From Chloroflexota bacterium (GTDB lineage: Bacteria; Chloroflexota; Dehalococcoidia; Tepidiformales; Tepidiformaceae): a stretch of 64,000 nt of DNA. The notes under the pieces are model-generated. The model did no database searches. It was given only the letters and a program-made list of their open reading frames with translations, and had not been told where the DNA came from. The position numbers were made by a program, and so were the translations under genes. The stretch spans positions 1 to 64,000 of the forward strand of contig JACRBT010000014.1 in NCBI GenBank assembly GCA_016234445.1, written 5' to 3'. Positions 180 to 40,080 of this stretch are shown piece by piece. Position 1 is the first letter of the stretch; every line of letters begins with the position of its first letter.

Positions 180-201
180 ACCACTCCTTCACAGTCGTGG
201 C
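180..201 (+). repeat. R2 dispersed repeat copy
   Basis: The 22-base core starts ACCACTCCTTC and ends ACAGTCGTGGC. Identical cores occur at 20834, 37122, 37273, 37405 and 37476. Here it stands without the R1 hairpin that precedes it elsewhere. Confidence 0.8.
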
Positions 202-2533: not shown

Positions 2534-2602
2534 GAGTGCTGAGTGCTGAGTGCTGAGTGCTGAGTGCCGAGTGCTCAGGACTAACAGCTAACAGCTAACA
2601 GC
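2534..2602. repeat. Heptanucleotide tandem repeats (GAGTGCT)n and (CTAACAG)n
   Basis: Six tandem copies of GAGTGCT (one with a single change) fill 2534-2575, and three perfect copies of CTAACAG fill 2581-2601. They lie between the convergent ends of the SQR-like gene and the next gene. Other 7-base arrays occur at 3374, 7138, 8503, 29726 and 34871. Confidence 0.9.
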
Positions 2603-20699: not shown

Positions 20700-20715
20700 C
20701 GGCCGGGGAGTGAGG

Positions 20716-20855
20716 GCCCTCACCCCCTGCCCCCTCTCCCGCTGCGGCGGGCGAGGGGGTGGTACGGAGCGAACGGCGCGGCATGCTGCGGGAGGCGGTC
20801 TCCGGGGCGCTGGATGCGGAAGCGCGCGGGGCGACCACTCCTTCACAGTCGTGGC
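20716..20855 (+). repeat. Composite R1+R2 element
   Basis: An R1 hairpin (20716-20759; here the stem is CCCGC/GCGGG) is followed by ~75 unique bases and an R2 core (20834-20855). The same arrangement and spacing occur at 37004 and 37155. A tail reaching GGCGCGCTA at 20947 supplies the stop codon of the converging CoA-transferase gene. Confidence 0.85.
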
Positions 20856-20946
20856 TCGGCGATTGGGGCTCGACTCGGGCAGCCCCGCTGCGGCGGGCGA
20901 GGGGAACGAACGACGGGGCCCATCGGAGTCCAGTTGGACGGGCGCG

Positions 20947-36173: not shown

Positions 36174-36998
36174 ATGCTGGAACTAACACAGCGGCTGCTC
36201 CGGGCGGCGGAGGGGGGCGACGCGGTCGTCCTCGCTTCGGTCATCGAAGCGGGGGCGGAGGCGGTGACCCCGGGCGCGCGGATGCTGATTGAAGCGGACG
36301 GCACGCGGATGGGCTCGCTGGGGATGGCCGCGCTCGACGAGGCCGCTGCCGCCTACGCCGCCTCGGCCTTCGAACGTCACGCCGCCGAGACCACGTACTT
36401 CGACGGCACGGCGCTCGCCCCGCGCTTCAGGCAGGGCGCGACTGCCGTCTATATAGAGGTAGTGGAGGCGCGGCCGGTGTTCCTTGTCGTCGGCGCCGGG
36501 CACATTGGGCGGTCGCTGGCGCACCTTGCCTCGATGCTCAACTTCCAGGTGGCGGTGGTCGACGACCGCGACGACATGGCGAACGCGGAACGCTTCCCCG
36601 AGGCCGACGAGGTCATCTGCGCGGATTACGAGGAGGCGCTGGACCGCTTCCCGATCAACTCCAATACGACCATTGTGCTGGTGACGCGCGGCCACAAGCA
36701 GGACGAGCTTTCGCTGCGCCACTGCCTCGGCCGGGGGGCGGCGTACCTCGGGATGATCGGTTCGAAGCGGCGGACGGGCGCGGTCCTCCAGCACCTCCGT
36801 GACGACGGGTTCGACCCCGAAGAGCTGGCGAAGGTGCGGACGCCAATAGGGCTCGACATCGGGGCGGAGACGCCGGAGGAGATCGCGATCGCGATCATGG
36901 CCGAGGTGATCATGCTTCGGCGCGGGGGGACGGCGAAACCGATGTACCACCGGCGGCCGCACCACGCTCCCGGCCCGCGCCCGGATCCGCGCGCGTGA
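36174..36998 (+). CDS. XdhC/CoxI-family molybdoenzyme maturation protein
   Basis: The protein has 274 residues. The N-terminal XdhC_CoxI part (1-95) is followed by the Rossmann domain beginning PVFLVVGAGHIGRSLAHLA, then VVDDRDDMANAERFPEADEV, IVLVTRGHKQDELSL and YLGMIGSKRRT. The ending PIGLDIGAETPEEIAIAI is diagnostic. Family members bind and sulfurate or insert the molybdenum cofactor, usually for xanthine-dehydrogenase-type hydroxylases. No such hydroxylase lies next to it; the Mo enzyme at 24612 belongs to a different superfamily, so its client is probably elsewhere. Confidence 0.92.
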   Translation: MLELTQRLLRAAEGGDAVVLASVIEAGAEAVTPGARMLIEADGTRMGSLGMAALDEAAAAYAASAFERHAAETTYFDGTALAPRFRQGATAVYIEVVEARPVFLVVGAGHIGRSLAHLASMLNFQVAVVDDRDDMANAERFPEADEVICADYEEALDRFPINSNTTIVLVTRGHKQDELSLRHCLGRGAAYLGMIGSKRRTGAVLQHLRDDGFDPEELAKVRTPIGLDIGAETPEEIAIAIMAEVIMLRRGGTAKPMYHRRPHHAPGPRPDPRA

Positions 36999-37003
36999 GG
37001 GGG

Positions 37004-37506
37004 CCCCTCACCCCCTGCCCCCTCTCCCGCTGCGGCGGGCGAGGGGGTGGTAGGGAACGAACGACGCGGCGTGCTGCGAGAGGTGGGCTCCGGGACGCCG
37101 AATGCGAAGGCAGGCGGGGCAACCACTCCTTCACAGTCGTGGCACGGCGAGGGGGCCCTCACCCCCTGCCCCCTCTCCCACTGCGGTGGGCGAGGGGGTG
37201 GTACGGAGCGAACGACGCAGCGTGCTGCGGGAGGTGGGCTGCGGGACGCCGAATGCGAAGGCAGGCTGGGCAACCACTCCTTCACAGTCGTGGCACGGCG
37301 AGGGGGCGGCGGCTCCTGCAGGCCCGCTGCGGCGGGCGAGGGGGTGGTAGGGAACGAACGACGCGGCGTGCTGCGGGACGCCGAATGCGGAGGTAGGCGG
37401 GGCGACCACTCCTTCACAGTCGTGGCACGGCGAGGGGGAGGCTCCGGGACGCCGAATGGGGAAGCAGGTGGGGCGACCACTCCTTCACAGTCGTGGCACG
37501 GCGAGG
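37004..37506 (+). repeat. Tandem array of the composite R1+R2 element
   Basis: Two full units (R1 at 37004-37047 with R2 at 37122-37143; R1 at 37155-37198 with R2 at 37273-37294) repeat with a period of 151. Two shortened units follow, with R2 cores at 37405 and 37476. This array fills the gap between the convergent xdhC-like and P-type ATPase genes. No gene is supported here. The first R1 begins 6 nt after the plus-strand stop codon. Confidence 0.9.
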
Positions 37507-37548
37507 GGGATGACGAAGGCGCGAACGGACCGCTGCACTTAAGGGGCG

Positions 37549-40080
37549 CTACGCGGCGGCGGGGGTCGGCTTTCTGCCCTTCCAGGGCTCCAGCCAGAGC
37601 GTTGTCGCGGCGGCGACGAGGAGGGCGACGCCGAGTTCGGCCGGGCTCGGGCCTTCCAGGCGCATGGCGTCGTTCAGGCCGGGGAGGTAGACGATGGCGA
37701 CGAGCAGGGCGAGGGTCGCGGCGACGACCGGCAGGAGCGTCTTGCTGCCGCGGTACTTCGCCCGCCAGACCGGCGCATCGGGTGAGCGTTCGACCAGCAC
37801 CATGATCGTTTGCCCCAGGACCATCGCCGTGAAGGCCATGCCCCGGGCGTGCTCTTCGGGGACATCCGCCGCCAGCCGTGCGAGGTAGAGGGCGACTGTC
37901 GCGGCCGCGAGGGTGAAGCCAGTCGCCAGGGGGCGGGCAGCGTGGCGGCGGCTGACGAGGGGCTCCGATGGGCTTCGCGGCGGCCTTTGCATGAGGCCAG
38001 GCGGGGGCGGGTCGCCTTCGAAGACGAGCGCGACGGTCGGGTGGAGGATCAGCTCGAGGATGACGAGGTGGACCGGGAGGAGGAGGAGCGGTTCGCCGGT
38101 GAGGGGGACGGCCATCGCCACCAGGAGCAGCGGCACGTGGAAGCCGACGAGGTAGGCCACGGCGCGGCGAAGGTTTTCGAAAATCCGGCGCCCGTCCCGG
38201 ATGGCGCCGACGATGGTCGAGAAGTCGTCGTCGATGAGGACGAGGGTCGCCGCCTCGCGGGCGACCTGCGTCCCGCGGCGCCCCATGGCGATGCCGATGT
38301 CGGCCTCCCGCAGAGCCGGGGCGTCGTTGATCCCGTCGCCGGTCATGGCCACGGTTTCGCCGGCGGCCCGCAGCGCCCGGACGATCTCGTACTTCTGGGC
38401 CGGCTGGGTGCGCGCGAAGACGGTGGCGTTGGCGATGCGCTCGGCCCGCCCGCCGTGGCTGAGCGCGTCCAGTTCCGCCCCGGTGATGATGTCGTCTTCG
38501 GCCGCGGGAAGATGGAGGCTGTTGGCGACCGCCATCGCCGTGATCGGGTGGTCGCCGGTGATCATCACGACCCGGATCCCGGCGGCGCGGCACTCCTCGA
38601 GCGCGTCGAGAACCCCCGGGCGCACGGGGTCGGAGAAGGCGACGAGCCCGAGGAAGCGGAGGTGACGTTCGTCTTCGGTTCGCCCCTGCGGCCCACCCGG
38701 GAGTTCGCCCGCGGCCACGGCGATGACGCGCATCCCTTCCGACGCCAGGGCGGCATTCGTCTCCTCCGCGGTCCGGCGGTCCGGCTCGGAGAGTGCCGCC
38801 ACCGCGAGGATGCCTTCGAGGGCGCCCTTCGCGAAGACCTCGTGGCGCCCGTCCCGCTGCCAGACGCGCGAGAGGTACTTCGCGGCGGGGTCGAAGGGGT
38901 GCTCGGCGACGGACACGAGACCCCCCGGGAGGGCGAGGCCGGCGGTCCCGGCGTAGCGGACGATGGCGACTTCGAGCGGGTCGAAGGGCTGGGGCTCGGA
39001 GGCGAGCATGGCGGATTCGAGGAGGGCTTTCGCGGCCGCGCCGGGGGCTTCGCCGCCGCGAGTGACCTCGGTCCCGGCGGCGAGGGCCGCGACTTCCAGG
39101 TGGCCGAGGGTGAGCGTGCCGGTCTTGTCGGTGCAGATGACGGTCGTCGCGCCGAGGGTTTCGACCCCAACGAGCCGCCGGACGAGGGCGTTTTCCTTCG
39201 CCAGCCGCCACGCCCCGAGACCGAGATAGAGCGTGAACACCATCGGGAACTCTTCCGGGATGGCGGCGATGGCGAGGCTGACCCCGGCGATCAGCGCCGC
39301 CCCGGTGCCTTCGCCATAGGCGAGCTGCGTCCCCACGACGACGACGCAGACGACCCCGCCAATCGCCGCGAACTGGCGGACGAGGCGGTTGATGAGCGCC
39401 TGGAGCGGCGTCGCCTTCTGCTCGATGGTCGCGACGAGGGTGCCGACCTGGCCGAAACGGGTGGCGGGGCCGGTCGCTCCCACGCGGAAGAAGCCGCGGC
39501 CGGAGAGGACGTTGGTGCCGGCGTAGAGGGCGTCATCGTCGTCGCCGGCGCCGGAGTTGGCCTTTGCCACGGGGTGGGATTCGCCGGTGAGGGACGACTC
39601 GTCGACCATCAGTCGCGCCACCCCCACGAGCGTCCCGTCGGCGGGGATCACGTCGCCTTCGCGGACCAGGAGGAGGTCGCCGGGAACGATCTCGACGGCG
39701 GGGATGGAGGCGGCGCGGCCGTCGCGCCAGGCTGTTGCGAGTGGGGCCGTGAGCTGGCGCAGCTCGGCCAGGGCGCGCTCCGAGCGGGCTTCGAGGAGGT
39801 AGTTGACCCCGGCGATCGGGATGATGGCGGTGAGGGTGACGACGGCGTCGAGGTAGTTGCCGAGGGCGATGTAGATGGGCGCGGCGAGGAGGAGGAGGAT
39901 CGCCATCGAATCCACGAGGGGGCGGACGAAGCGGAGGAGGGCGGGGAGACGGCGGGCTTCGGGCAGGAGCCGGTTGGGGCCGTGGCTGCGAAGAAGGGCG
40001 CGGGCTTCGGTGGCGGAAAGCCCGGATTCCCCCGGCGGGGGGGCCTCGGGAGGTGGGCGCTGGGCAGCGTCAGCCGGCAC
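37549..40080 (-). CDS. P-type cation-transporting ATPase (P2/P3-like)
   Basis: The protein has 843 residues. The order is: cation ATPase N-terminal domain, two helices, actuator domain with the LTGES loop, helices, phosphorylation site VICTDKTGTL, then the nucleotide domain, MTGDGINDAPAL hinge and C-terminal helices. No N-terminal metal-binding Cys motif and no CPC motif are present, so it is not a heavy-metal pump. Calcium, magnesium or proton transport is likely, and the ion cannot be fixed from sequence. The start is GTG 40080 without a clear ribosome site. Its TAG stop lies in the repeat tail GGGGCGCTA. Confidence 0.92.
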   Translation of the reverse strand: MPADAAQRPPPEAPPPGESGLSATEARALLRSHGPNRLLPEARRLPALLRFVRPLVDSMAILLLLAAPIYIALGNYLDAVVTLTAIIPIAGVNYLLEARSERALAELRQLTAPLATAWRDGRAASIPAVEIVPGDLLLVREGDVIPADGTLVGVARLMVDESSLTGESHPVAKANSGAGDDDDALYAGTNVLSGRGFFRVGATGPATRFGQVGTLVATIEQKATPLQALINRLVRQFAAIGGVVCVVVVGTQLAYGEGTGAALIAGVSLAIAAIPEEFPMVFTLYLGLGAWRLAKENALVRRLVGVETLGATTVICTDKTGTLTLGHLEVAALAAGTEVTRGGEAPGAAAKALLESAMLASEPQPFDPLEVAIVRYAGTAGLALPGGLVSVAEHPFDPAAKYLSRVWQRDGRHEVFAKGALEGILAVAALSEPDRRTAEETNAALASEGMRVIAVAAGELPGGPQGRTEDERHLRFLGLVAFSDPVRPGVLDALEECRAAGIRVVMITGDHPITAMAVANSLHLPAAEDDIITGAELDALSHGGRAERIANATVFARTQPAQKYEIVRALRAAGETVAMTGDGINDAPALREADIGIAMGRRGTQVAREAATLVLIDDDFSTIVGAIRDGRRIFENLRRAVAYLVGFHVPLLLVAMAVPLTGEPLLLLPVHLVILELILHPTVALVFEGDPPPPGLMQRPPRSPSEPLVSRRHAARPLATGFTLAAATVALYLARLAADVPEEHARGMAFTAMVLGQTIMVLVERSPDAPVWRAKYRGSKTLLPVVAATLALLVAIVYLPGLNDAMRLEGPSPAELGVALLVAAATTLWLEPWKGRKPTPAAA

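What the first reader, a model, noticed from the sequence alone, without database searches (positions are those of the whole stretch)
37004..37506. Composite ~140-base R1+R2 element, tandemly repeated with period 151
R1 hairpin, ~75 bases and R2 core form one conserved unit at 20716, 37004 and 37155; two shortened units follow. The 75-base inner part is also conserved by eye. It has no open frame of its own kind, so it may be a non-autonomous mobile element or a family of small RNAs.
Basis: seen in the sequence. Interest (0 to 1): 0.6.

Follow-up and report, generated by a model that had tools for sequence, protein, structure and literature searches.

The report
Chimeric transposase-linked repeat, tandemly copied
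The repeated block is half of a small mobile DNA hairpin element, of a kind found beside an unusual class of single-strand transposase genes, fused to an unrelated hairpin repeat and then copied in tandem between two genes; the fusion is a local accident, but it led to a clear description of how that poorly known element family is built.

Summary
A 151-base unit (R1 hairpin, about 75 bases, R2) stands at 37004 and 37155 (94% identical), with two shortened units behind and another copy at 20716. R2 is a REP-type element: on the minus strand it forms CCGTG-[CCAC-GA-CT-GTGA-AG-GA-GTGG], a hairpin with G·A mismatches and a GNNA loop. The genome holds 137 matches to this hairpin pattern (reversed control 0). 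They cluster beside two IS200-like HUH/Y1 transposase genes, and relatives of these genes in other phyla carry the same covarying hairpin: 66 of 80 loci, 220 hits against 1.2 expected. The proteins (Y....Q motif) and the 5' CnGA foot of most relatives match "class 3" TnpA_Y1 (PMC6006769). Complete R2 elements are inverted doublets (REPIN-like, partner start usually 88-90 bases away). In the window unit the R2 arm and spacer are one half of such a doublet; the left-arm position is taken by the end of R1, an independent hairpin repeat widespread in the phylum. The chimera occurs only at these two places, with GAGGGGG at every junction: a secondary fusion, spread locally by tandem duplication. 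"Non-autonomous mobile element" is right for R2, not shown for the composite; a small-RNA family is not supported.

The parts
37004..37154 (+). Composite unit 1: R1 hairpin + spacer (inner part) + R2 arm
37005..37047 (+). R1 hairpin repeat of unit 1 (CCCTCACCCCCTGCCCCCTCTCCCGCTGCGGCGGGCGAGGGGG); stem 7+5 bp with one mismatch; member of a 28-copy genome family widespread in the phylum
37034..37053 (+). Position where the left REP arm of a complete R2 doublet would begin (88-90 bases before R2); occupied here by the 3' strand of R1 and GAGGGGGTGGTA
37049..37122 (+). Inner part = doublet spacer; homologous to the spacer of R2 units at contig C5:273288 (z 8.5, 0 of 500 shuffles) and C4:40712/40900 (z 5.9-7.6)
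37123..37142 (-). R2: class 3-type REP hairpin, minus strand CCAC GA CT GTGA AG GA GTGG
37143..37147 (-). 5' foot of the REP (minus strand CCGTG); CnGA + G/A in most relatives
   Evidence: compare PMC6006769
37155..37305 (+). Composite unit 2 (R1 stem has the compensated change CCCAC/GTGGG for CCCGC/GCGGG)
37323..37437 (+). Shortened unit 3: R1 lacks its 5' side, spacer shortened
37430..37508 (+). Shortened unit 4: no R1, spacer + R2 only
20716..20862 (+). Composite unit at the second site; 20887-20919 is a degenerate start of a following unit, so this site descends from a piece of an array
181..200 (-). R2 without R1, with an inverted type A REP (88-107, +) as partner at 93 bases
36174..36998 (+). 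XdhC-type gene ending just before the array
37549..40080 (-). P-type cation ATPase gene, convergent, ending just after the array

Best explanation
R2 is the REP arm of a REPIN-like element associated with class 3 HUH/Y1 transposases. Shown: a short hairpin with internal G·A mismatches, a GNNA loop and a 5' foot, conserved with base-pair covariation, lies on both sides of these genes in many phyla, and in this genome most R2 copies are one arm of an inverted doublet. Inferred from TnpA_REP and IS200/IS605 biochemistry: the transposase binds the hairpin on one strand of single-stranded DNA, the foot guides cleavage, and doublets are excised and re-inserted in trans, which scatters them between genes. 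The window unit is a chimera in which the left arm of one doublet was replaced by the 3' part of an unrelated hairpin repeat, R1, probably by recombination at a shared GAGGGGG-type sequence. The chimera was then amplified locally by tandem duplication and trimmed by deletions between GAGGGGG repeats, and a piece of the array was copied once between 37 kb and 20.7 kb. Lacking one arm, the chimera itself is probably not transposed as a REPIN.
For: Two IS200-like transposase genes in this genome sit among these hairpins: C1:257.8 kb among R2 copies, C9:67.3 kb among the related type A. Orthologues in the same taxonomic family carry the same structural motif with other stems. Of 80 relatives from several phyla, 66 have it (220 hits, 1.2 expected), and 44 of 62 have it on both sides of the gene at about 50 bp. 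Ten loci of other Y1 classes: 0 hits in 30 kb. Detection by unpaired anchors only still gives 83% Watson-Crick pairing against 30-32% when shifted. The covariation score was reached by none of 500 shuffles. The DNA minimum-energy fold equals the model. Motif and transposase co-occur in 38 genomes, 11/3/2/22, p = 1.9e-5, not corrected for relatedness. The predicted fold of a relative matches 2f4f, ISDra2, IS608 TnpA and TnpA_REP 4er8. Y....Q in 33 of 33. Doublet partner in 30 of 53 R2 sites, mode 88-90. Spacer homology. GAGGGGG at all junctions.
Against: No class 3 activity was found described in the papers read (PMC6006769 calls for experiments), and no empty site or target duplication was found. 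In this genome the foot is CCGT(A/G), not the CnGA of most relatives. 14 of 80 relatives lack the motif as defined. One phylum genome (G205, 74% complete) has 24 copies but no transposase was detected. The homology of the R1 end to a REP left arm is weak by sequence; only position and a G-rich stretch support replacement rather than simple juxtaposition.
Confidence: 0.78

Rival explanations
1. The composite is itself a mobile unit: the R1 hairpin serves as the second end, so R1+spacer+R2 moves in trans as a chimeric REPIN.
For: Two places 16 kb apart share the same junction and 89% identity, and the similarity begins exactly at the R1 start on the left.
Against: Only two places among 28 R1 and 53 R2 copies. 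The copied piece runs into part of a following unit, which fits copying of array DNA better than precise excision. R1 occurs in a genome without any detected Y1 transposase (G014).
Confidence: 0.12
2. Structured RNA: the array lies between convergent genes and acts in RNA as a 3' end stabiliser or bidirectional barrier to transcription.
For: Both sites lie between convergent genes; R1 is a strong hairpin (z about -3); the minus strand of the unit folds as RNA with z -2.9.
Against: No Rfam match, promoter or terminator tail. The conserved G·A hairpin sits beside a transposase gene across phyla, which a gene-end role does not predict. A side effect of this kind is compatible with the best explanation.
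Confidence: 0.2
3. A MITE of a DDE transposon, with R1 and R2 as unequal ends.
For: Short, non-coding, repeated, bounded by hairpins.
Against: R2 hairpins accompany HUH/Y1 genes; the composite has no terminal inverted repeat of its own; no target duplication is evident.
Confidence: 0.03

Closest known systems
Class 3 TnpA_Y1 REPtrons (PMC6006769)
   Same: Y----Q motif, extended N-terminal conservation, genes flanked by atypical hairpins with foot CnGA, high copy number, phyla Planctomycetes/Acidobacteria/Proteobacteria
   Different: Foot here is CCGT(A/G); hairpin model with covariation, doublet organisation and presence in Chloroflexota are added here; published set had 10 to 24 members, the scan here finds 418 relatives
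REPINs / BIMEs of Pseudomonas and E. coli (PMC3116915)
   Same: Inverted REP doublets with spacer, tied to a tyrosine transposase; tandem clusters including flanks known
   Different: No GTAG foot; short 4-bp basal stem with internal G·A mismatches; composite lacks one REP arm
E. coli REP and TnpA_REP (PMC8266576; PDB 4er8)
   Same: Strand-specific hairpin with a required mid-stem mismatch and a guide tetranucleotide; predicted protein fold matches 4er8
   Different: Different foot, loop and mismatch; protein only about 12% identical over the structural alignment
Degenerated GTAG-1 units joined to unrelated stem-loops in P. putida and P. fluorescens (PMC3733652)
   Same: A REP arm adjoining an unrelated hairpin, as in the window composite
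   Different: There hundreds of copies, some flanking transposase genes; here two places only, and R1 is an independent repeat

Membership tests
Class 3 TnpA_Y1 REPtron | Y----Q signature with HUH | tested here: met
   33 of 33 relatives with Y....Q, 32 of 33 HxHxV; own genes YVTDGQ and YVSEGQ
Class 3 TnpA_Y1 REPtron | Gene flanked by atypical hairpins | tested here: met
   66 of 80 loci, 220 hits against 1.2 expected; 44 of 62 on both sides
Class 3 TnpA_Y1 REPtron | 5' foot CnGA | tested here: inconclusive
   CnGA in most named relatives; this genome has CCGT followed by G or A
Class 3 TnpA_Y1 REPtron | Hairpins in high copy in the genome | tested here: met
   137 matches, reversed-pattern control 0
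Class 3 TnpA_Y1 REPtron | Protein groups with published class 3 sequences | not testable with these tools
   the paper's sequence supplement could not be read
REPIN | Two REPs in inverted orientation at fixed spacing (R2 family as a whole) | tested here: met
   30 of 53 sites, mode 88-90
REPIN | Two REPs in inverted orientation in the window composite itself | tested here: not met
   no left REP arm at 20835, 37123, 37274, 37406, 37477; R1 in its place
Canonical GTAG REP | GTAG or GTGG foot | tested here: not met
   foot CCGTG/CCGTA
REP mobilisation by the transposase | Strand-specific cleavage and transfer | not testable with these tools
   needs biochemistry
Known structured RNA family | Match to an Rfam model | tested here: not met
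   0 matches at gathering thresholds

The most novel reading that the evidence does not exclude
The class 3 transposase accepts the R1 hairpin as a foreign second end, so chimeric doublets built from a REP arm and an unrelated hairpin can move; REP families could then recruit new ends and diversify by capture.
Probability: 0.1. Interest if true: 0.65.

Novelty: new variant of a known kind. Interest (0 to 1): 0.42.

Why it matters
Class 3 Y1 transposases were known from 10 to 24 proteins with hairpins described only as atypical (PMC6006769). A structural consensus that works across phyla (4-bp stem, G·A mismatches, GNNA loop, CnGA-type foot) makes their substrate predictable and testable in vitro, and the inverted doublets in this genome suggest that this branch, proposed as an intermediate between insertion sequences and domesticated REP transposases, also runs REPIN-like populations. 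The window composite is a worked case of how REP units fuse with other repeats and amplify in tandem.

Tried and rejected
Small-RNA family: no Rfam match, promoter or terminator. Coding repeat: period 151 shifts the frame. R1 as the REP of the third Y1 gene (C9:98.6 kb): that gene is flanked by a GTAG-type REP, and the regex scan found no R1 in the Y1 loci searched (L070-L072, L100-L125, L146-L160); one diverged R1-like copy lies about 1.6 kb from that gene behind another gene. R1 tied to Y1 transposases in general: G014 has 39 matches to the unit, the listed ones covering R1 only, and no PF01797 gene. Target-site duplications for the composite: none evident by eye; no same-genus genome was available for an empty-site comparison. 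Motif/transposase co-occurrence at phylum level was uninformative because of background matches and only one further rich genome, G205. An initial strict sequence pattern missed many relatives; the structural scan recovered part of them.

Full report
Observation. The 151-base tandem repeat at 36997-37438 and the further 71-base repeat to 37510 are found by two independent programs. Units 1 and 2 (37004-37154, 37155-37305) are 94% identical. A third full unit stands at 20716-20862. Two shortened units follow the pair at 37323-37437 and 37430-37508. Neither core is expected in shuffled sequence.

What R2 is. The core CCACTCCTTCACAGTCGTGGC has 53 copies in the 3.54 Mb genome and none for the reversed control. 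Variants CCGC...GCGG keep the stem by a compensated change, and the TTT variant clusters at contig C1:257.0-258.4 kb around one of only three Y1_Tnp (PF01797) genes of the genome. Another such gene at C9:67.3 kb is flanked by a related hairpin, type A (CCGCGACTGGAAAGGAGCGG), and the third by a GTAG-type REP. On the minus strand R2 reads CCGTG followed by CCAC GA CT GTGA AG GA GTGG. That is a 4-bp stem, two mismatches (G·A and A·G), two pairs and a GNNA loop. The DNA energy model gives exactly this fold, although its energy alone is not unusual.

Test of the transposase link outside this genome. Relatives of the C9 gene occur in 14 of 38 genomes of the same order, and the flanks of part of them carry the same structure with other stems, such as CCCC/GGGG, GCCC/GGGC and GCGC/GCGC. 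A profile scan of 84,980 species finds 418 relatives. The best 80 come from Planctomycetota, Acidobacteriota, Legionella, Chloroflexota, Verrucomicrobiota and others. The hairpin model, drawn from this genome and its near relatives, is found at 66 of these 80 loci, 220 times against 1.2 expected. It stands on both sides of the gene in 44 of 62 loci with enough sequence, at a median of about 50 bp and mostly in inverted orientation. Ten loci of other Y1 classes have none in 30 kb. To avoid circularity the hairpins were also collected by their unpaired letters only (233 hits, 26 expected): 83% of the model's pairs are Watson-Crick, against 30-32% in shifted registers. On 68 distinct sequences, a subset chosen by hand for diversity, all six pairs show changes on both sides and the covariation score exceeds every shuffle. 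Among 38 genomes, transposase and motif co-occur, 11/3/2/22, p = 1.9e-5, not corrected for relatedness.

Which class. The proteins have the HUH motif and, in 33 of 33, Y....Q. Their Pfam and NCBIfam scores for IS200 and REP transposases are weak. A predicted structure of a relative (pLDDT 87) matches IS200/IS605 transposases and TnpA_REP 4er8. Published class 3 TnpA_Y1 is described by Y----Q, extended N-terminal conservation, Planctomycetes/Acidobacteria/Proteobacteria, and atypical hairpins with foot CnGA (PMC6006769). The relatives here show CnGA plus G or A before the hairpin; this genome has CCGT(A/G). Membership is therefore well supported but not proven, since the class 3 sequences themselves could not be read.

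Organisation. Of 53 R2 sites, 30 have an inverted REP partner within 150 bp, most often 88-90 bases away, so the usual R2 element is a REPIN-like doublet. Tandem arrays of such doublets at other places in the genome have periods near 192; tandem REPIN clusters are known in P. fluorescens (PMC3116915).

The window composite. None of the five composite units examined has the left arm. Their inner part aligns with the spacer of R2 units at C5:273288 and C4:40712/40900 (z 8.5, 7.6 and 5.9; 0 of 500 shuffles), while most other R2 units have spacers with no detectable similarity. In the left-arm position stands the 3' strand of the R1 hairpin, ending GAGGGGGTGGTA. Stand-alone R1 copies continue differently (AACGCGGGCGTTGACAGG...). 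The motif GAGGGGG lies at every junction of the array, eight times. The simplest history is one fusion at a G-rich microhomology, tandem duplication, and deletions between GAGGGGG repeats. Similarity between the two sites starts exactly at R1 and runs into a piece of a following unit (20714-20919 with 37153-37367), so a piece of array was copied between them. R1 is found in 37 of 201 genomes of the phylum and in G014, which has no detected Y1_Tnp gene; it is an independent repeat.

Surroundings. Both sites lie between convergent genes: 3-hydroxyacyl-CoA dehydrogenase and a CoA transferase at 20.7 kb, XdhC-type protein and a P-type ATPase at 37.0 kb. A side effect on transcript ends is possible. 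No promoter, terminator or Rfam family was found.

Limits. Mobility is inferred from the biochemistry of related enzymes (PMC8266576); nothing here shows movement. A genome of the same family, G003, has loci identical to Dehalococcoidia bacterium FeB_14, which places the window in Dehalococcoidia, Chloroflexota; its own name is not known. Copy numbers rest on pattern scans with stated mismatches.

Noticed in passing
window 10771, 18955, 27416, 46755 (and about 20 further places in the genome): R1 belongs to a longer conserved element in many of its stand-alone copies (hairpin + AACGCGGGCGTTGACAGGCTTCATCCAGGTCGAGTTGGAAGGGCACTAG, often CTAG...CTCCAAC upstream), possibly with terminal inverted repeats; L055 shows ACTAGCGTGCCGCTC on both sides.
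   Followed up: partly
L072 1850-2680 (contig C9:98.6 kb): A second type of Y1 transposase gene (P0003, near the NCBIfam REP transposase cut-off) flanked by a GTAG-type REP, GGTAGCCGCGGCCNNCCGTGGCCGCATC.
   Followed up: partly
L078 542-945, L020, L038: Alternating arrays of R2 doublets and type A REPs with period near 192-204: REP families of two different transposases interleaved.
   Followed up: no
genome G205 (phylum search): 24 copies of the class 3-type hairpin but no class 3 transposase found; assembly 74% complete.
   Followed up: no
genome G014: 39 matches to the unit, the listed ones R1 only, many in tandem with spacing about 100-150, without any detected Y1 transposase gene: R1 multiplies by some other route.
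   Followed up: no
window 2534-2575: Short tandem repeat of GAGTGCT (6 copies).
   Followed up: no
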